The position numbers were made by a program, and so were the translations under genes. A stretch of DNA of 64,000 nucleotides. Source: Nocardioides yefusunii. GTDB taxonomy: Bacteria > Actinomycetota > Actinomycetes > Propionibacteriales > Nocardioidaceae. The notes beneath the pieces are model-generated. The model was not told the DNA's origin. It worked only from the letters and a program-made list of their open reading frames with translations, and did not search any database. Positions 541 through 9,278 of the stretch are shown piece by piece. Where the stretch lies: the NCBI RefSeq assembly GCF_004014875.1, contig NZ_CP034929.1:2976001-3040000 (forward strand). Direction: 5' to 3'. Numbering within the stretch: position 1 is the stretch's first letter; each line of letters starts with the position of its first letter.

Positions 541-574
541 GGCGTCATTGTGCCCCTCCCCCACGACGGCGGTG

Positions 575-733
575 TCCACAGGCACCGCGGACACGCTGCC
601 GCGGGACGGTCCCGAACCGCTACCTTCGGCGCCGGGAGCACTCGGGAGGGGTCATGGGGATGAAGAGGTTGGTCGCAGCGCTCAGCGCTGTCGCGCTGCT
701 GGGGGCGTGCAGTGCAGAGGCTGAGCCGAAAAC
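575..733 (+). repeat. Direct repeat A, copy 1 (cassette leader)
   Basis: About 159 bp running from upstream of the first lipoprotein gene through its signal peptide and lipobox. It matches 2031-2189 at a constant offset of 1456 with only scattered substitutions. It carries the leader, the GGGAGG ribosome-binding site and the first 26 or so codons, so each cassette has its own start region. Confidence 0.9.
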
Positions 734-1187
734 AGACGTTGCCCCGCCACACCCGACACCCTCCCCCAGCGAGACGCAGCAGACAGAAGAACCACGGCGA
801 ACTGATACCCCGGAGAACACCATCCGGACCTGGTTCAACGAGCTCGATAACGCTCAGGCCACAGGAAACACAGAACGCCTTAAGTCCTTGATCACGCCGG
901 CCTGTTCATTCTGTGAACTCATCATCGAAGTGATCGATGAAGTCTGGGCCGCGGGCGGAGAGATTCAGACCGGACCCGAACGAATCATCGAGTGCAAGGA
1001 ACTTCCCACTGAGGGCCTCGACAAGAATGCTCGCGCTTTCAGCGTCCTCTCGGAAACTCCCCCGACCGTGCTCTTCTACGGCGACGAAGATCCCCGAACT
1101 GAGTCAACGGGGGTTTCCAGAGTCAGATACACATTGTTCCTTACCCACCAAGACAACGAGTGGCTTCTCGCATCCATGGATTCGTGA
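654..1187 (+). CDS. DUF6318-type lipoprotein, cassette 1
   Basis: A 177-residue predicted lipoprotein. The N-terminus has a short positive start, a hydrophobic core and lipobox LGAC with Cys19, so it should be exported and lipid-anchored on the outer face of the membrane. A Pro/Ser/Thr-rich linker (about 28-52) leads into a domain resembling DUF6318: a TPENTIRTWF start, a small-protein-like helix, a CSFC (CxxC) pair and an AAGGEI segment. The function of that family is unknown to me. A second in-frame ATG at 660 lies 10 nt after the GGAGG and may be the true start. The stop is followed one base later by the start of the secreted PKD-like gene, so the two are certainly cotranscribed. The paralog at 2110 has near-identical first residues but a very different body. 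Confidence 0.85.
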   Translation: MGMKRLVAALSAVALLGACSAEAEPKTDVAPPHPTPSPSETQQTEEPRRTDTPENTIRTWFNELDNAQATGNTERLKSLITPACSFCELIIEVIDEVWAAGGEIQTGPERIIECKELPTEGLDKNARAFSVLSETPPTVLFYGDEDPRTESTGVSRVRYTLFLTHQDNEWLLASMDS

Positions 1188-1188
1188 C

Positions 1189-2022
1189 ATGCGCGGATCG
1201 ATTCCCAAGGCCGCACTCAGCCTCAGTGCCCTAGCAACCGTCTTGGTGGCCCCGGCCGCCCACGCAAGCGACAGAGCCCGAGACCTCGAGTTTTCAAACC
1301 CCAACTTGATTGAGACGAAAGCCAGAGAGCGACAAGCCAAGCGATTCCCAGGCGCAACCCCCTCGCGGGGGAATATCCCCGAGCCCACCCAGACTCTGTA
1401 CCGGCCGATGTGCGACTTTGACGAACTCTCCGACCAAGAATTCCAAGAGTGTGCAAGGAACTGCCTGCACACACCCGGTCGAATCTTGGGCCCGCACTAC
1501 GTGGACTTCCGCGATTACGACGCGGCCACCGGCTCCTACGGAGCGTGGCGTGCAGGAACAGTCGCATGCATGCCGCAGGGTCCCAATGAGTTCGATCCCC
1601 GCGAAGCACTGCTTGCCTTCGAGAACCATTCCTGGCCCAAAGCCGCACTCACCCTCGACCCCTCCCACGGCCTCACCCTCGTCAACAAAACCACCACCGC
1701 AACCACGGTGAACCCCGGCCCCATCACCAAGGACTTCACCCTCCTCGGACAAGCCGTCACCATCGAAGCCACCCCGAAGTCATGGACCTGGCACTGGGGC
1801 GACAACACCACCGAAACCACCACCCACCCCGGAACCGACGGCACCATCAGCCACGCCTACCCACGCGCAGGGCAGAACCTCAACCCACGCGTCGACGTCA
1901 CCTACACCGGACGCTGGAAACTCGCCGACGGCGCATGGCAGACCATCCCCACCACCCACACCGTCACCGGCAACGCACTCAACCTCGACGTCCACGAAGC
2001 CGTCATCCACCTCACCCGCTGA
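1189..2022 (+). CDS. Secreted PKD-like domain protein, cassette 1
   Basis: 277 residues. I chose the ATG that directly follows the lipoprotein stop, since it opens a good Sec signal peptide ending in APAAHA (about residue 26); the reading frame extends upstream without such a signal. The middle (about 60-150) is Cys-containing and has no recognised domain. The C-terminal 125 residues hold a PKD-like beta-sandwich pattern, with WTWHWGDN then ISHAYPRAG, as in extracellular adhesion or binding modules. No membrane anchor is visible, so it may associate with the partner lipoprotein. The last 376 coding bases are almost identical to those of the paralog at 2640, with two mismatches in the whole repeat by my reading, while the first halves share little. 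Function unknown. Confidence 0.8.
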   Translation: MRGSIPKAALSLSALATVLVAPAAHASDRARDLEFSNPNLIETKARERQAKRFPGATPSRGNIPEPTQTLYRPMCDFDELSDQEFQECARNCLHTPGRILGPHYVDFRDYDAATGSYGAWRAGTVACMPQGPNEFDPREALLAFENHSWPKAALTLDPSHGLTLVNKTTTATTVNPGPITKDFTLLGQAVTIEATPKSWTWHWGDNTTETTTHPGTDGTISHAYPRAGQNLNPRVDVTYTGRWKLADGAWQTIPTTHTVTGNALNLDVHEAVIHLTR

Positions 2023-2028
2023 CCTGCC
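1647..2028 (+). repeat. Direct repeat B, copy 1 (PKD-like 3' end)
   Basis: 382 bp covering the C-terminal PKD-like domain and stop of the first secreted protein. It matches 3158-3539 at offset 1511, with two substitutions seen (a GAA/GAC codon change and a CGC/CAC change). Identity of this degree next to unrelated centres suggests recent duplication or gene conversion. Confidence 0.92.
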
Positions 2029-2030
2029 TC

Positions 2031-2189
2031 TCCACAGGCACCGCGGACACGCTGCCGCGTCACGGTCCAGAACCGCTACCTTCGGCGCCGGGAGCACTCG
2101 GGAGGGGTCATGGGGATGAAGAGGTTGATCGCAGCACTCAGCGCTGTCGCGCTGCTGGGAGCGTGCAGCGCAGAGGCTGAGCCGAAAAC
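2031..2189 (+). repeat. Direct repeat A, copy 2 (cassette leader)
   Basis: Second copy of the cassette leader. It begins 8 bases after the stop codon of cassette 1 and runs through the lipobox of the second lipoprotein. Confidence 0.9.
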
Positions 2190-2643
2190 TGAACCGCCTG
2201 CGCCCTCCACCACCCCGACGCCCAGTGCGACTGCGACAGCCGGCGAATCCCTTCCGAGCGACACACCGGAAAAGGCGATACGTAAGTGGGTCAAGGCAGA
2301 TTCACGCATGCAGAACACTGGAGACTCCACGCAGTACCTGGCATTGACCACCGGCGACTGCCAGCCGTGCATCGCCTGGGCCAACAGAGTCGCCGAGACC
2401 TACTCCGCAGGAGGGCGAGCTCAAGGCGTGGAATTGACCGTCGACTCCGTCGTCCCTTTCTCGCTGGAGGAAGAGCGATGGCACATGCTCCAGATCTCGT
2501 CACCTCGGTGGACTCTGTATGAAGAATCAGGGTCCGAACCGACGGAATTCGACGGGGGAACCCAAGGCATAGCTGTTCAACTCAAGCGCGTTGAGGGGCG
2601 ACTTCTCGTACGCAATTTCTTGTTGCAGGGAAGTGCATCATGA
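2110..2643 (+). CDS. DUF6318-type lipoprotein, cassette 2
   Basis: 177 residues, the same length as the cassette 1 lipoprotein. The signal peptide and lipobox (LGAC, Cys19) are nearly identical to the first copy. After a short Pro/Thr linker the sequence diverges but keeps the family layout: DTPEKAIRKWV start, TGD segment, CQPC pair, YSAGGRAQG and a beta-rich C-terminus ending in a basic stretch. The conserved CxxC suggests a structural disulfide outside the cell. Its stop overlaps the next start by four bases (ATGA), so translation is coupled to the PKD-like partner. The same two-gene order in both cassettes argues that the two products act together. Function unknown. Confidence 0.85.
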   Translation: MGMKRLIAALSAVALLGACSAEAEPKTEPPAPSTTPTPSATATAGESLPSDTPEKAIRKWVKADSRMQNTGDSTQYLALTTGDCQPCIAWANRVAETYSAGGRAQGVELTVDSVVPFSLEEERWHMLQISSPRWTLYEESGSEPTEFDGGTQGIAVQLKRVEGRLLVRNFLLQGSAS

Positions 2644-3533
2644 GCGTCCCTTCCCTGGCGGCAAAGACCACCCTGATAGCACTGACCTCGTCCGCCGTCG
2701 CCATGGCTTACGCGTGGCCTGCCTCTGCAAGCGAACCTTCAGATTCCATGCGCGCTGACCCCGCACCCTCCACGCCTCAGGCTCGCTGCTCGCAGGGAAC
2801 TCTGTGGATCAGTGCCCACGCCAGATGCACCACGCCCAGCAGGGATGCCACCGATCGTGCGCCAGCGCCTAACGGCCAGCCCCGCGAATACCCGAAGGTT
2901 TCCTTGGTTCCCGCTTGCGCTCAGCGAACGGGCGGCTTCTTCATACACGTCGAGTGTTCTGCGGGATCCGCATGCACAGACAGCGAAGGAAACCCCAACA
3001 CCTTCTACCTGCGACTAACGATTCACTCCGAAGATCCCCGGGACCGCGAACTGGCAAGCGTGCCCCAATGTGGCCTTGGCACCGATCCCCCTGAAGGTGG
3101 CCCGACAGAATCGGAGGCTGCCGAGGCTTTCCGCTCGTACTCCTGGCCTGGCGCTGAACTCACCCTCGACCCCTCCCACGGCCTCACCCTCGTCAACAAA
3201 ACCACCACCGCAACCACGGTGAACCCCGGCCCCATCACCAAGGACTTCACCCTCCTCGGACAAGCCGTCACCATCGAAGCCACCCCGAAGTCATGGACCT
3301 GGCACTGGGGCGACAACACCACCGACACCACCACCCACCCCGGAACCGACGGCACCATCAGCCACGCCTACCCACACGCAGGGCAGAACCTCAACCCACG
3401 CGTCGACGTCACCTACACCGGACGCTGGAAACTCGCCGACGGCGCATGGCAGACCATCCCCACCACCCACACCGTCACCGGCAACGCACTCAACCTCGAC
3501 GTCCACGAAGCCGTCATCCACCTCACCCGCTGA
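2640..3533 (+). CDS. Secreted PKD-like domain protein, cassette 2
   Basis: 297 residues. The signal peptide ends near ASAS (about residue 31). The central part (about 40-170) contains eight or so cysteines and differs completely from that of the paralog, including in composition, with more A/T at third positions than the C-terminal part. The last 125 residues are the shared PKD-like domain (WTWHWGDN, ISHAYPHAG). The protein therefore looks like an exchangeable N-terminal module on a constant C-terminal module. It is cotranscribed with the upstream lipoprotein through an ATGA overlap and followed by a long hairpin. What the variable module binds is unknown; adhesion, cell-wall attachment and toxin-like roles are all open. 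Confidence 0.8.
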   Translation: MSVPSLAAKTTLIALTSSAVAMAYAWPASASEPSDSMRADPAPSTPQARCSQGTLWISAHARCTTPSRDATDRAPAPNGQPREYPKVSLVPACAQRTGGFFIHVECSAGSACTDSEGNPNTFYLRLTIHSEDPRDRELASVPQCGLGTDPPEGGPTESEAAEAFRSYSWPGAELTLDPSHGLTLVNKTTTATTVNPGPITKDFTLLGQAVTIEATPKSWTWHWGDNTTDTTTHPGTDGTISHAYPHAGQNLNPRVDVTYTGRWKLADGAWQTIPTTHTVTGNALNLDVHEAVIHLTR

Positions 3534-3539
3534 CCTGCG
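3158..3539 (+). repeat. Direct repeat B, copy 2 (PKD-like 3' end)
   Basis: Second copy of the 382-bp C-terminal repeat. Homology to copy 1 stops six bases after the TGA, where sequence unrelated to cassette 1 begins. Confidence 0.92.
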
Positions 3540-3542
3540 TAA

Positions 3543-3607
3543 CCAAACATGCAAAGGTGCTGTTCAGCGCCTTCCAGGGCCGTTCTGACGGACCTTTGCA
3601 TGTTTGG
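3543..3607. terminator. Long hairpin after cassette 2, convergent genes
   Basis: A perfect 16-bp inverted repeat (CCAAACATGCAAAGGT and its complement) encloses a 33-nt loop. It sits between the PKD-like gene and the convergent isomerase-like gene, so it could end transcription in both directions. There is no clear T-tract. The AT-rich stem is unlike typical terminators in this window. Confidence 0.6.
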
Positions 3608-3620
3608 CTACGGTCTGCGT

Positions 3621-5450: not shown

Positions 5451-6212
5451 GTGCCTGAAGTCGACCCCGTGTTCCCCCGTGTCTGGGTCGAGTTCCGCGA
5501 CCCCGCCGACTCCGAGCAGATGTTCCGCTGCGACCTGACGTGGCTGACGTCATCCTGGACCTGCATCTTCGGTTCGGGGTGCGCAGGCATCTACGACACC
5601 TCCCCCGACGTGGGCTGCTGCACGCTGGGCGCGCACTTCTCCGACGACGAGGACGAGGAACGCGTCGCCGGGTTCGTGGCGCAGTTGACGCCGCAGACGT
5701 GGCAGCAGCACCCGGGCCGCGAGGTCCGCGTCGAGGACTGGGTCGAGATCGACGACGACGGCGACCGCAAGACCGCCGTCTCCGACTTCGAGGGTCAGCC
5801 GGCGTGCGTCTTCTCCAACCGGCCGTCGTTCGGCGACCGTGCGGGGTGTGCGTTGCACGGGCTCGCGCTCGACCTCGGACTCAAGCACCTGGAGACGAAG
5901 CCGGACGTGTGCTGGCAGCTCCCGATCCGCCGGACGTACCGGACGGTCGAGGTCGGCGACGACACCTCGTACCTGGAGATCTCGATCGGCGAGTACGAGC
6001 GTTCGGGCTGGGGACCGGGCGGCCACGACCTCGACTGGTACTGCACCGGCAACACCGACGCGCACGTCGCACCCGATCCGGTCTACGTCACCCACGAGGA
6101 CGAATTGACCGAGCTGATGGGCGCCGAGGCGTACGCAGAGCTGGTTCGCCTGTGTGACGACCGCCTGCGTTCACGGTCGCTCCTTGCGATCCATCCTGCC
6201 TCGCGCCACTGA
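5451..6212 (+). CDS. Cysteine-rich conserved protein (YkgJ/DUF3109-like)
   Basis: About 253 residues, soluble. Ten or so cysteines form a pattern that suggests a metal or iron-sulfur site: CIFGSGC, GCC, ACVF, GCALHG, VCWQLP and YCTG. This resembles the UPF0153/YkgJ or DUF3109 type of cysteine cluster protein, whose role is not established. The N-terminal half is acidic ([11 protein letters not shown]). It is divergent from the Ppx/GppA gene, whose start is only about 47 bases away, so both promoters overlap. The GTG start is supported by a TACGAT hexamer at leaderless spacing. The exact family is uncertain. Confidence 0.7.
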
Positions 6213-6414
6213 CCTTCCAGATGGGAACATTTCCGCCCTGACCTGCGGCGATGAGCACGCACTGGGATTTTTCGGTACAAACTGAGACAGCGTTCCACTG
6301 TGCGTGAAATCATGGTCACGATCACCCACGACCTCTTGACGCGGAGAACCTCGACATCAAGAGAGATCGACCCCGACGTTGCATGCCCGCAGCCGGGTGG
6401 GTTCAATGCTTGGC

Positions 6415-7053
6415 ATGCGCCTGGACCACCTCTCCTACGCCGCCGGCCCCGACGGACTCGCCGCCACTGCAGCTCGCATTGGCGAACTTCTCGGCGGAGA
6501 ATTCGTCGACGGTGGCGTCCACCCCCGTTTCGGAACCCGCAACATGACCCTCGCCCTGGCGAACACGGTCTACCTGGAAGTCGTGGAGGTCCTCGACCAC
6601 CCGGCCTCCGACAAGGCCCCGTTCGGTCAGGCAGTGCGCCAGCGCTCCGCGCTCGGTGGCGGTTGGCTCGGCTGGGTCGTCGCGGTCAAGGACCTCGGAG
6701 CAGTCGAGACCCGTCTCGGCCGCGAAGCAGTCCCCGGCAACCGTCGTCGTTTCGACGGCGAGGAGCTCCGCTGGAAGCAGATCGGCGTCAACGGCCTGAT
6801 CGCCGACGCCCAGCTGCCGTTCTTCGTGCACTGGGAGACCGGACTCGACCTGCACCCCTCCACCGGTGGCGACGGCTCCATCGCGCTCACCGCCCTGGAC
6901 ATCGCCGGCGACCCGCAGCGTGTCTCCGACTGGCTCGGCGAGCCCGTCGACCGCCCGCTCAAGGACGTCTCGGTCAACTGGATCGCCCCCAACGGCACCC
7001 CCGGCCTGATGGCTGCGCAGTTCCACACGCGCAACGGCCTCGTCCGCATCTGA
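6415..7053 (+). CDS. VOC superfamily / glyoxalase-like domain protein
   Basis: 212 residues starting MRLDHLSYAAG, the typical first strand of the vicinal oxygen chelate fold, with paired beta-alpha-beta-beta-beta modules. It resembles the Glyoxalase_3-like family (NTVYLEVVEVLDHP, PFFVHWE, ALDIAGDP). Members include lyases, dioxygenases and resistance proteins, so no reaction is assigned. The frame is open further upstream, but the chosen ATG is where the fold begins. The 200 bases before it hold no other gene and are less GC-rich, so they probably contain the promoter. The methyltransferase follows 25 bases after the stop and may be cotranscribed. Confidence 0.78.
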   Translation: MRLDHLSYAAGPDGLAATAARIGELLGGEFVDGGVHPRFGTRNMTLALANTVYLEVVEVLDHPASDKAPFGQAVRQRSALGGGWLGWVVAVKDLGAVETRLGREAVPGNRRRFDGEELRWKQIGVNGLIADAQLPFFVHWETGLDLHPSTGGDGSIALTALDIAGDPQRVSDWLGEPVDRPLKDVSVNWIAPNGTPGLMAAQFHTRNGLVRI

Positions 7054-7078
7054 CGCACTGCGTCGCACAGGTTCCACG

Positions 7079-7813
7079 ATGACGGGTTTTCGGGCCACCG
7101 CGCCTGCCGGGGTGCGCCCGAGCCCGAACATCTGGCACCACACCTCCACCTACGAGGTGGAGAACCGGGCCGTCGACCCTGACGGCCGTCTCGAAGCAGC
7201 CCTGCGCGAGACCGCCTCCTGGCGGGGACGCACCGTCCTCGACCTGGGCTGCGGCTCCGGCTTCCACCTGCCGTTCTTCGCCGAGGAGGCCGCGCAGGTG
7301 ATCGGCATCGAGCCGCACCCGCCACTGGTCGGGCTGGCCCGCCGACGCACCCGTCGGATCCCGCACGTCTCAGTGCTGCAGGGCACCGCCCAGTCGATCC
7401 CGCTGCCCGACGACTCCGTCGACGTCGTGCACGTGCGGTGGGCCTACTTCTTCGGCCCCGGCGCAGAGCCCGGCCTGGCCGAACTCGCCCGCGTCGTGCG
7501 TCGCGGTGGCACCGCGATGGTGATCGACAACGACGCCACCCGCTCGACGTTCGGCGAGTGGTTCCGTCGCGGCTACGCCGGCTACGACGCCGACGAGGTC
7601 GAACGGTTCTGGTCGGCCCAGGGCTGGACGCGTCGCAGTGTCGACATGGACTGGGGCTTCGAGTCGTGGGAGGACCTCGAGGCCGTCGTGCGGATCGAGT
7701 TCGACCCCGCGACCGCCGACGCCGTGCTCGCGCAGTGGCGCGCCCGTCACGGGGACTCCCCCGACGGCCTGCGCGTGGACTACGCGGTCAACCTCTTCTC
7801 CAAGGACTTCTGA
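7079..7813 (+). CDS. Class I SAM-dependent methyltransferase
   Basis: 244 residues. The Rossmann-like SAM site is clear: motif I VLDLGCGSG (about residues 53-61), an acidic residue ending strand 2 (IGIEPHP), then ALQGTAQSIPLPDDSVDVVHVRW and a hydrophobic strand after RVVRRGGTAMVID. This is the Methyltransf_11/25 pattern, and the substrate cannot be inferred. No membrane segment. It lies between the VOC gene and radA, all on the plus strand; the gap to radA (70 bases) contains that gene's own promoter-like hexamer. Confidence 0.85.
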   Translation: MTGFRATAPAGVRPSPNIWHHTSTYEVENRAVDPDGRLEAALRETASWRGRTVLDLGCGSGFHLPFFAEEAAQVIGIEPHPPLVGLARRRTRRIPHVSVLQGTAQSIPLPDDSVDVVHVRWAYFFGPGAEPGLAELARVVRRGGTAMVIDNDATRSTFGEWFRRGYAGYDADEVERFWSAQGWTRRSVDMDWGFESWEDLEAVVRIEFDPATADAVLAQWRARHGDSPDGLRVDYAVNLFSKDF

Positions 7814-7871
7814 GCGTCCTTCTGAGCACGTCCACCACACCGCTGGCCACGAAGGTGTCGGTGCCGTCGCC

Positions 7872-7877
7872 TAGCGT
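7872..7877 (+). promoter_or_regulatory. Leaderless -10 for radA
   Basis: TAGCGT six bases before the radA ATG; no Shine-Dalgarno sequence. Confidence 0.5.
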
Positions 7878-7883
7878 GCTCCC

Positions 7884-9278
7884 ATGAGCAAAGCCCGGGT
7901 GCGCGCCGTCTACCGCTGTTCCGAGTGCGGTTGGGAGACGGCCAAGTGGGTCGGTCGCTGTGGCGAGTGCCAGGCCTGGGGGTCGGTGGCCGAGGCTGCC
8001 AACGCGCCTGCCGGACGCACCCCTGCCGCCCCGGTGACGACGCCTGCCGTCCCGATCGGTCAGGTCTCGGTCAAGGACTCCGAGTTCCGCACCAGCGGCG
8101 TGCCCGAGCTCGACCGCGTCCTGGGCGGCGGCTTGGTCCCCGGCGCCGCGATCCTGTTGGCCGGCGAGCCCGGCGTCGGCAAGTCGACCTTGCTGCTCGA
8201 GGTGGCCGCCAAGACCGCCCAGCAGCGCGAGCGCGTCCTCTACGTCACGGGCGAGGAGTCGGCCTCCCAGGTGCGGCTGCGCGCCGACCGCACCCACTCC
8301 GTCCACGACGAGCTCTACCTCGCCGCAGAGACCGATCTCGGCGCGCTCCTGAGCCACATCGAGGCGGTACGGCCCACCCTGCTGGTGGTCGACTCCGTGC
8401 AGACCATCAACGCCTCCGGCACCGAGGGTGTCCCCGGCGGCGTCAGCCAGGTCAAGGAGGTCGCCGCCGCACTGGTGCGCACCGCCAAGACCCGCAACAT
8501 CACCACCGTGCTGGTCGGCCACGTCACCAAGGAGGGCTCGATCGCGGGGCCGCGCGTCCTGGAGCACCTGGTCGACGTCGTCCTGCACTTCGAGGGCGAC
8601 CGCAACTCCCGTTTCCGCATGGTCCGAGCCATGAAGAACCGCTTCGGCCCGATCGACGAGGTCGGCTGCTTCGACCTCGGCGCGGCCGGCATCACCGCCG
8701 TCTCCGACCCCACCGGCCTCTTCGTCGAGCACCACTCCGTCCAGGTTCCCGGCACCTGCGTCGCGGTGACGATGGAAGGCCGACGACCGATGCTCGCCGA
8801 GGTGCAGGCGCTCGTCACCCCCACCACCTCCGAGCGTCCCCGTCGCACCACCTCGGGCATCGACTCCTCACGTCTCTCGATGGTCCTGGCGGTGCTCCAG
8901 CAGCACTGCGGCATTCGCCTGCACCAGCACGACGTCTTCGTCTCCACCGTCGGCGGCGCCAAGCTCGTGGAGCCCGCCAGCGACCTCGCCGTCGCGGTCG
9001 CGGTGGCCGGAGCCTGCTTCAACATCGCCGCACCGATGGGCGTCGTCGCGATGGGGGAGATCGGTCTGGCCGGCGAACTGCGCCGTGTCCGGGACCTCCC
9101 CCAACGCGTCGCCGAGGCCGCCCGTCTGGGCTTCAAGGTCGCGGTCGTCCCCACCGAACGCGGACGCCAGAACGGGCCCCGACGCCCTGAGTCGTGGACC
9201 GTCGACGGGATGCAGGTCCTCGACGTCGCCAACGTGTTGCACGCTCTGACGTTGCTGCGCCTGACCCGCCAGCAGTGA
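7884..9278 (+). CDS. radA: DNA repair protein RadA
   Basis: 464 residues, a RecA-like ATPase that promotes branch migration in recombinational repair. Domains in order: a zinc finger with C12-x2-C15 and C26-x2-C29; a RecA-like ATPase with Walker A GEPGVGKST at 94-102 and the RadA-specific KNRFG motif near 251; and a C-terminal Lon-protease-like domain without protease function. Length is standard. It precedes disA by 118 bases on the same strand, the arrangement conserved in many Actinobacteria and Firmicutes that links DNA repair to the DNA-scanning c-di-AMP synthase. A leaderless-type promoter hexamer precedes it. Confidence 0.97.
   Translation: MSKARVRAVYRCSECGWETAKWVGRCGECQAWGSVAEAANAPAGRTPAAPVTTPAVPIGQVSVKDSEFRTSGVPELDRVLGGGLVPGAAILLAGEPGVGKSTLLLEVAAKTAQQRERVLYVTGEESASQVRLRADRTHSVHDELYLAAETDLGALLSHIEAVRPTLLVVDSVQTINASGTEGVPGGVSQVKEVAAALVRTAKTRNITTVLVGHVTKEGSIAGPRVLEHLVDVVLHFEGDRNSRFRMVRAMKNRFGPIDEVGCFDLGAAGITAVSDPTGLFVEHHSVQVPGTCVAVTMEGRRPMLAEVQALVTPTTSERPRRTTSGIDSSRLSMVLAVLQQHCGIRLHQHDVFVSTVGGAKLVEPASDLAVAVAVAGACFNIAAPMGVVAMGEIGLAGELRRVRDLPQRVAEAARLGFKVAVVPTERGRQNGPRRPESWTVDGMQVLDVANVLHALTLLRLTRQQ

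What the first reader, a model, noticed from the sequence alone, without database searches (positions are those of the whole stretch)
575..3539. Tandem two-gene surface cassette with identical ends and unrelated centres
Two successive units each encode a DUF6318-like lipoprotein plus a secreted PKD-like protein. The first 159 bp (leader, signal peptide, lipobox) and last 382 bp (PKD domain; two mismatches) are shared, but the parts between are very different. This modular arrangement looks like gene conversion or cassette exchange that keeps export and C-terminal docking parts constant while varying the exposed module, as in polymorphic surface systems. I found no description of such a system in memory.
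Basis: partly seen in the sequence, partly recalled or inferred. Interest (0 to 1): 0.7.

Follow-up and report, generated by a model that had tools for sequence, protein, structure and literature searches.

The report
Swappable two-gene surface protein cassette
A pair of neighbouring genes for a membrane-anchored and a secreted protein, found in nearly every genome of this bacterial genus, keeps its two ends but exchanges its whole middle between genomes, which suggests a surface recognition system kept diverse by selection.

Summary
Each unit encodes a lipoprotein A (DUF6318; predicted NTF2-like head; CxxC) and a secreted protein B with a PKD-like tail. In the window the ends are recent copies (4-fold sites of the PKD part: 1 of 79 differ), while the centre, A head to B head, is saturated (11 of 13; 11 of 17). 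B relatives occur in 198 of 215 genomes of the genus, almost certainly Nocardioides. Other multi-copy genomes repeat the pattern. At orthologous loci the centre is replaced between near-identical genomes: G166/G167 have flanks of 99-100% and PKD 100%, but heads 60% and 53%. Centre classes are shared between species, are under purifying selection, and A and B heads mostly travel together. Ends are converted between loci. Exchange is therefore well supported. Corrections: the centres are diverged alleles of one family, not unrelated, and B's signal peptide lies inside the exchanged block. Function is inferred: a polymorphic surface recognition pair (phage or predator escape, kin recognition, or toxin-immunity). 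My paper searches found no description.

The parts
573..582 (+). DnaA-box-like TGTCCACAGG at the 5' edge of unit 1
   Evidence: TCCACA/TGTGGA in 77 of 86 leaders against 369 of 6306 tiled windows, and in 54 of 61 leaders of a second set
575..736 (+). 5' shared arm of unit 1 (leader, A1 signal peptide, lipobox)
   Evidence: 95.1% identical to 2031-2192
654..1187 (+). A1: lipoprotein, DUF6318 (start 654 or 660)
   Evidence: fold
737..1629 (+). centre of unit 1: A1 head, B1 signal peptide, B1 head
   Evidence: background identity to unit 2; saturated 4-fold sites
1189..2022 (+). B1: secreted protein with PKD-like tail
1630..2027 (+). 3' shared arm of unit 1 (PKD part, stop)
   Evidence: 98.0% identical to 3141-3538
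2029..2038 (+). DnaA-box-like TCTCCACAGG at the 5' edge of unit 2
2031..2192 (+). 5' shared arm of unit 2
2110..2643 (+). A2: lipoprotein, DUF6318-like below the cut-off (start 2110 or 2116)
2193..3140 (+). centre of unit 2: A2 head, B2 signal peptide, B2 head
2640..3533 (+). B2: secreted protein with PKD-like tail
   Evidence: fold
3141..3538 (+). 3' shared arm of unit 2

Best explanation
The window holds two tandem copies of a nearly universal, polymorphic two-gene cassette of its genus. A is a lipoprotein with a predicted NTF2-like head; B is a secreted protein with a variable N-terminal head and a PKD-like tail. The middle of the operon (A head, B signal peptide, at least the first part of the B head) behaves as one allele. 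SHOWN by comparison: this block is replaced at orthologous loci while the flanks stay nearly identical; its classes are shared across species; within a class it is under purifying selection; and the conserved arms are homogenised between copies of one genome, in one case visibly by conversion tracts. INFERRED: incoming DNA with another allele recombines through the conserved arms and either replaces the resident centre or adds a second unit, as in G116 against the single-copy G013. INFERRED with less certainty: A and B act together at the cell surface, the PKD tail is the constant attachment part, and rare-allele selection keeps many head types because another party recognises them. That party could be phages or predators, kin, or a cognate toxin. 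My preferred reading is a surface recognition pair under frequency-dependent selection; the confidence below is for the exchange, and for this function it is about 0.45.
For: Recent ends with old centres in the window and in other genomes: conserved 5' and 3' arms in tandem units of G002, G023, G099, G137, G138, G214, G200, G116 and G058 and in dispersed pairs of G064, G014, G009 and G032, more weakly G155 and G080. Swap at one locus: G166/G167, 1070 nt upstream 100%, 1160 nt downstream 99%, PKD 100%, A head 60%, B head 53%; also G086/G164 and G136/G135. 15 of 18 pairs. Trees: 13 of 13 recent-end pairs are sisters by PKD, 6 of 13 by A head; a foreign A head is nearer than the in-genome one in 6 of 13. 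Within-class dN/dS 0.04-0.24 (A head) and 0.12-0.44 (B head) in six pairs. A-head and first-half B-head similarity correlate at r 0.66 and 0.65 in two locus groups (partial 0.60, 0.64; Mantel p 0.001); 20 of 25 pairs with similar B heads have similar A heads. Conversion of ends: 13 of 20 PKD differences at the second G166/G167 locus make the G166 copy like the other locus, 5 the G167 copy, 2 neither. Centre G+C is below that of the flanks in 143 of 143 cassettes.
Against: In 7 of 13 recent-end pairs no foreign A head is nearer than the in-genome one, and 6 of 13 are sisters in the A-head tree, so exchange is not shown for each pair. The right edge of the block varies: in the 23-cassette locus group the later B head follows PKD (r 0.87). 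Of 42 pairs with similar A heads, 22 lack similar first-half B heads. A test of A-B pairing inside multi-copy genomes was weak: mean r 0.07, 12 of 22 positive. In several multi-copy genomes (G003, G005, G154, G094, one G002 copy) the PKD parts are diverged too. No donor with a near-identical centre was found; the nearest are 68-71%. No physical interaction, expression or phenotype was tested.
Confidence: 0.78

Rival explanations
1. Toxin-immunity (a functional rival inside the same exchange mechanism): B is a secreted toxin whose variable N-terminal head kills, A is its membrane-anchored immunity protein, and the block travels as a cognate pair.
For: Two exported products, A before B with overlapping or abutting genes, exchanged largely as a block; lower G+C of the centre.
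Against: The locus is in 198 of 215 genomes, while toxins are usually patchy (recalled). No match to a toxin or immunity family in Pfam scans of 79 A and 82 B proteins or to PADLOC for the window's four proteins. In four small-genome loci B stands without a recognisable A. The variable part of B is N-terminal, unlike most polymorphic toxins (recalled).
Confidence: 0.22
2. Plain duplication of one unit, followed by very fast point divergence of the centre under diversifying selection, without exchange.
For: In 6 of 13 recent-end pairs the two A heads are sisters.
Against: Within a class the heads are under purifying selection; B's signal peptide is as diverged as the heads; 4-fold sites are saturated in the centre and almost identical in the arms; the G166/G167 centre differs at 40-47% of sites between flanks of 99-100%; foreign heads are nearer in 6 of 13 pairs.
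Confidence: 0.06
3. Shared ends reflect strong purifying selection only, on two old paralogues.
For: The PKD tail and A signal region are the more conserved parts across genomes.
Against: Synonymous 4-fold sites: 1 of 79 differ within the window, median 0.52 against other genomes.
Confidence: 0.02
4. Antigenic variation inside one clone from a silent archive of centres, as in pilin loci.
For: Conserved ends around a variable middle; several units in some genomes.
Against: No further copy in the own genome by DNA, protein or family search; the swapped G166 and G167 centres are each found once in their own genome and not in the other (only two candidates a genome were scored there).
Confidence: 0.05
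5. The unit is a mobile element or gene cassette moved by a transposase or recombinase.
For: At most 5 of 48 long loci shared a neighbour in a first clustering; shared units are sharply bounded: the 5' edge lies 58-108 nt before A in 11 of 15 pairs and the 3' edge within -2 to +38 nt of the stop of B in 12 of 15.
Against: Two orthologous locus groups (23 and 19 cassettes) keep their position while centres change. No B relative in phage or plasmid records. The unit itself encodes no recombinase; its neighbours were not scanned systematically.
Confidence: 0.1

Closest known systems
ComQXPA pherotype locus of Bacillus (also agr of Staphylococcus, recalled)
   Same: A contiguous polymorphic block in an operon at a conserved position; in B. 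subtilis isolates with gyrA about 99% identical, comQ falls in three clusters only 65-70% identical (PMC4408185, passages read).
   Different: Those encode a pheromone maker, pheromone and membrane receptor; here both products are exported and no signalling domain was found. The unit also multiplies in tandem and at other sites.
DUF6318 (PF19843)
   Same: 62 of 79 A proteins match it at E 0.05 or better.
   Different: A family of unknown function; the name is in none of the held papers. The PKD partner and the allelic exchange are not part of its definition.
PKD domains (PF00801, PF18911)
   Different: The window's own two B proteins are below the cut-offs (B1) or without a match (B2).
Pilin-type antigenic variation (recalled)
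   Same: Conserved ends, variable middle, gene conversion.
   Different: No silent archive found; variation lies between genomes.
Polymorphic toxin-immunity systems (recalled)
   Same: Two-gene block of variable modules exchanged next to constant parts.
   Different: Nearly universal in the genus, variable part N-terminal in B, no toxin or immunity family match.

Membership tests
DUF6318 (PF19843) for A | profile match over the curated cut-off | tested here: met
   A1 27.7 bits against 23.8; A2 only 15.7 bits, below the cut-off; 62 of 79 members match at E 0.05
NTF2-like fold for A | cone-like alpha-beta fold of the superfamily | tested here: met
PKD domain for the B tail | Pfam match over the cut-off | tested here: not met
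   window B1 10.7-10.9 bits, below cut-off; B2 no match; 57 of 82 relatives match PF00801 at E 0.05
PKD domain for the B tail | PKD fold | tested here: met
ComQXPA/agr-type polymorphic signalling locus | signal peptide precursor, processing enzyme and receptor kinase | tested here: not met
   two exported proteins without such domains
ComQXPA/agr-type polymorphic signalling locus | polymorphic block with trans-lineage classes at a conserved locus | tested here: met
Pilin-type antigenic variation | silent archive of variable segments in the genome | tested here: not met
   G000; G166/G167: (two candidates a genome scored)
Polymorphic toxin-immunity | toxic B head neutralised by cognate A | not testable with these tools
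   needs expression; no family match
Mobile genetic element | recombinase, terminal repeats or target duplication | tested here: inconclusive
   none encoded in the unit; sharp edges; neighbours not scanned and no empty/filled site pair examined

The most novel reading that the evidence does not exclude
A bacterial counterpart of a trans-species balanced polymorphism such as MHC or self-incompatibility: an almost universal surface locus of a genus in which cognate A-head/B-head pairs define recognition types. The types are older than the species that carry them, are exchanged between genomes as blocks through conserved arms, and can be stacked in tandem, as in the window, so that one cell carries more than one type.
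Probability: 0.35. Interest if true: 0.9.

Novelty: new variant of a known kind. Interest (0 to 1): 0.74.

Why it matters
It gives two protein families without a known role (DUF6318 and its secreted PKD partner, whose relatives were found in 130 of 197 genomes sampled over the class) a clear evolutionary signature. Loci kept this polymorphic are usually interaction interfaces (general knowledge), so the centre marks where phages, predators, kin or rivals may touch these cells. G166/G167, G136/G135 and G086/G164 are natural swap pairs with which this can be tested directly.

Tried and rejected
Duplication plus point divergence, purifying selection alone and a silent archive were tested and disfavoured. 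A test inside multi-copy genomes of whether A and B heads prefer the same foreign relatives gave mean r 0.07, 12 of 22 positive and 66 of 110 sign agreements: no support for functional pairing beyond linkage. Searching the protein collection with the head of B2 found nothing, and with the head of B1 only itself; that tool needs shared exact words. I first thought the hypervariability absent in family f3 from one pair (G048/G038); the full set has the A head more than 15 points under PKD in 6 of 10 f3 pairs, so that was dropped. The DnaA-box-like motif as a special cassette end was weakened: G000 has 29 TNTCCACAGG sites against 8 for the reversed control, and several lie before other genes. PHROGs hits were marginal, E 0.005 or worse. 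A profile search of solved structures matched only the first 73 positions, that is signal and linker. Foldseek with the whole B model had no hit at E 0.001, which proves nothing about its low-confidence N-terminal half. Papers: DUF6318 in none; two searches listed none, searches gave listings; passages were read in two papers only. These cover open-licence papers only. Rows dropped: 4 of 147 cassette records (L047, L083 and both of L033) were left out of alignments because of doubtful or broken frames, leaving 143; in the first set 82 of 86. 9 of 95 B hits in the first set and 1 of 62 in the second had no A by my lipobox rule; some are contig ends or split frames. Of the 198 genus genomes with a B relative I fetched and analysed a part: 147 cassettes from 119 genomes, order relatives included.
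Full report
THE OBSERVATION. The window begins beside a proC-like gene on the other strand (named from recall) and holds two head-to-tail units, 575-2030 and 2031-3538. Each has a lipoprotein gene A followed by a secreted-protein gene B; A2 and B2 overlap by 4 nt and B1 starts 1 nt after A1. The 5' arms are 95.1% identical over 162 nt and the 3' arms 98.0% over 398 nt; 1647-2027 has two mismatches and the first 159 nt have seven. Between them identity is at background. At 4-fold sites the PKD parts differ at 1 of 79, the A domains at 11 of 13, the B N-terminal parts at 11 of 17 and the A signal-plus-linker at 6 of 18; the PKD part against 80 cassettes of other genomes differs at a median of 0.52, minimum 0.18. 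The ends are recent copies of each other and the centres are not. The own genome (3.32 Mb, one contig) has only these two units.

DISTRIBUTION. A relative of B is in 198 of 215 genomes of the genus, own included, and in 130 of 197 genomes drawn over the class. An A gene was found directly upstream at 86 of 95 and 61 of 62 B hits in two sets from the genus and its order. In 20 class-level loci an A profile match stands beside B in nine at E 3.4e-13 or better and in three more weakly; in four from small genomes I saw no A upstream. B2 has no tblastn match in the phage and plasmid records.

THE PATTERN RECURS. Tandem units in G002, G023, G099, G137, G138, G214, G200, G116 and G058, and dispersed pairs in G064, G014, G009 and G032 (more weakly G155 and G080), have conserved 5' and 3' arms with diverged centres. 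In 15 pairs with both arms, the 5' edge lies 58-108 nt before A in 11 and the 3' edge within -2 to +38 nt of the stop of B in 12. In 12 such pairs mean identity is 0.92-0.98 over the first 30 columns of A, 0.21-0.52 over A columns 81-187, 0.21-0.42 over B columns 1-60 (signal peptide included), 0.36-0.64 over columns 61-120 and 0.89-1.0 from column 131 on. Medians over all 22 within-genome pairs: A signal 0.85, A head 0.35, B head 0.35, PKD 0.86, against 0.35, 0.21, 0.19 and 0.45 between genomes. Not all multi-copy genomes have recent ends: in G003, G005, G154, G094 and for one G002 copy the PKD parts are diverged too.

REPLACEMENT AT ORTHOLOGOUS LOCI. G166 L173 and G167 L171: 1070 nt upstream 100%, 1160 nt downstream 99%, PKD 100%, A head 60%, B head 53%; the 40-nt windows from A294 to B799 are at 32-70%. 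G086/G164 has flank windows at 88-100% and centre windows at 33-61%; G136/G135 has centre windows at 45-70%. Over 18 pairs with flank identity of 85% or more, each cassette used once, 15 have an A head under 65%; similarity was found on one flank only in some, for example G012/G022, where PKD is diverged too. Counter-examples are the second G166/G167 locus, G017/G223 and G092/G232, whose A heads are 74-97%. G013 has one unit and G116 two: G013's upstream flank matches one G116 unit, while its downstream flank and its centre match the other, so a unit with another centre was added. The swapped G166 and G167 centres have relatives in different genomes (71% in G060; 69% and 68% in G217 and G209) and none in each other's genome.

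CLASSES AND LINKAGE. In two orthologous locus groups (23 and 19 cassettes) A heads fall into classes shared by several genomes. A-head and first-half B-head similarity correlate at r 0.66 and 0.65 (partial on PKD and A signal 0.60 and 0.64; Mantel p 0.001), against 0.36 and 0.17 with PKD and 0.08 and 0.13 with the A signal. The right edge of the block varies: in the first group the later B head follows PKD (r 0.87; 0.32 in the second). Of 10124 between-genome pairs, 25 have similar first-half B heads and 20 of these similar A heads (0.1 expected); 22 of 42 with similar A heads lack similar B heads at that threshold. This shows inheritance largely as a block, not binding; a test inside multi-copy genomes was weak. 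In six same-class pairs dN/dS is 0.04-0.24 for the A head and 0.12-0.44 for the B head, not unlike PKD in the same pairs (dS is near or beyond saturation in some): classes are old and conserved, not fast-mutating.

HOMOGENISATION OF ENDS. PKD trees join 13 of 13 recent-end pairs by genome, A-head trees 6 of 13. At the second G166/G167 locus, of 20 PKD differences 13 make the G166 copy like the other locus, 5 the G167 copy and 2 neither; the 13 are mostly clustered. This is what conversion tracts since the split of the two genomes would leave.

THE LEADER. TCCACA or its complement stands in 77 of 86 leaders (73 on the + strand, 69 of these 79-110 nt before A) against 369 of 6306 tiled windows, and in 54 of 61 leaders of a second set; the commonest context is TTNTCCACAGG. 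TTGTCCACA is listed as the high-affinity DnaA box of Streptomyces coelicolor and Mycobacterium tuberculosis (PMC4285127, passages read). The shared 5' arm of the window begins inside this motif. Similar sites precede other genes in G000, so a regulatory element is likelier than a cassette end. DnaA binding is untested.

MECHANISM. Incoming DNA with another allele most simply recombines through the conserved arms and replaces the centre; unequal events add a unit. This is inferred from the products; the route of the donor DNA is unknown. B's signal peptide being as diverged as the heads and the lower G+C of the centre in 143 of 143 cassettes (medians 0.627 against 0.700 in flanks) fit the exchange of a DNA block. 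Function is inferred: two exported products whose heads are kept polymorphic point to recognition by another party. I put phage or predator escape and kin recognition together first, toxin-immunity next.

NOVELTY. Exchange of variable blocks between conserved flanks is known in other settings (comQXPA: PMC4408185, passages; agr and pilins, recalled). A genus-wide two-gene exported cassette of DUF6318 and a PKD partner was not found in the held open-licence papers by my searches.

Noticed in passing
window 3543-3607: Strong hairpin (predicted -37.7 kcal/mol for 3539-3610) just after the last unit, terminator-like. Perfect stems of 10 or more within 120 nt after B in 25 of 143 cassettes against 3 of 143 in a control stretch inside B.
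   Followed up: partly
window 573-582 and 2029-2038; L095, L103, L106 (G000): DnaA-box-like TNTCCACAGG sites also stand before other genes of this genome, among them ORFs that look like recA and nrdR (named from recall); 29 sites against 8 for the reversed control.
   Followed up: partly
L033 (G023) 5767-8635: In both tandem units of G023 the PKD part is split over two reading frames, which would fit a break shared by conversion, or sequencing error.
   Followed up: no
L143, L144, L145, L158: In four loci from small genomes (1.3-2.2 Mb) the B relative stands without a recognisable A upstream, with a short cysteine-bearing N-terminal part.
   Followed up: no
L032 (G002) 6256-7638 and L082 (G191): Extra units in opposite orientation to their neighbours, with diverged PKD parts.
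   Followed up: no
L034 and L004 (G014): The shared 3' part of the two dispersed units runs about 1.4 kb beyond the stop of B, so here the copied stretch included downstream sequence.
   Followed up: no
window 737-1629 and 2193-3140; 143 cassettes: The centre has lower G+C than the flanks in 143 of 143 cassettes and lower than PKD in 139 of 143.
   Followed up: yes
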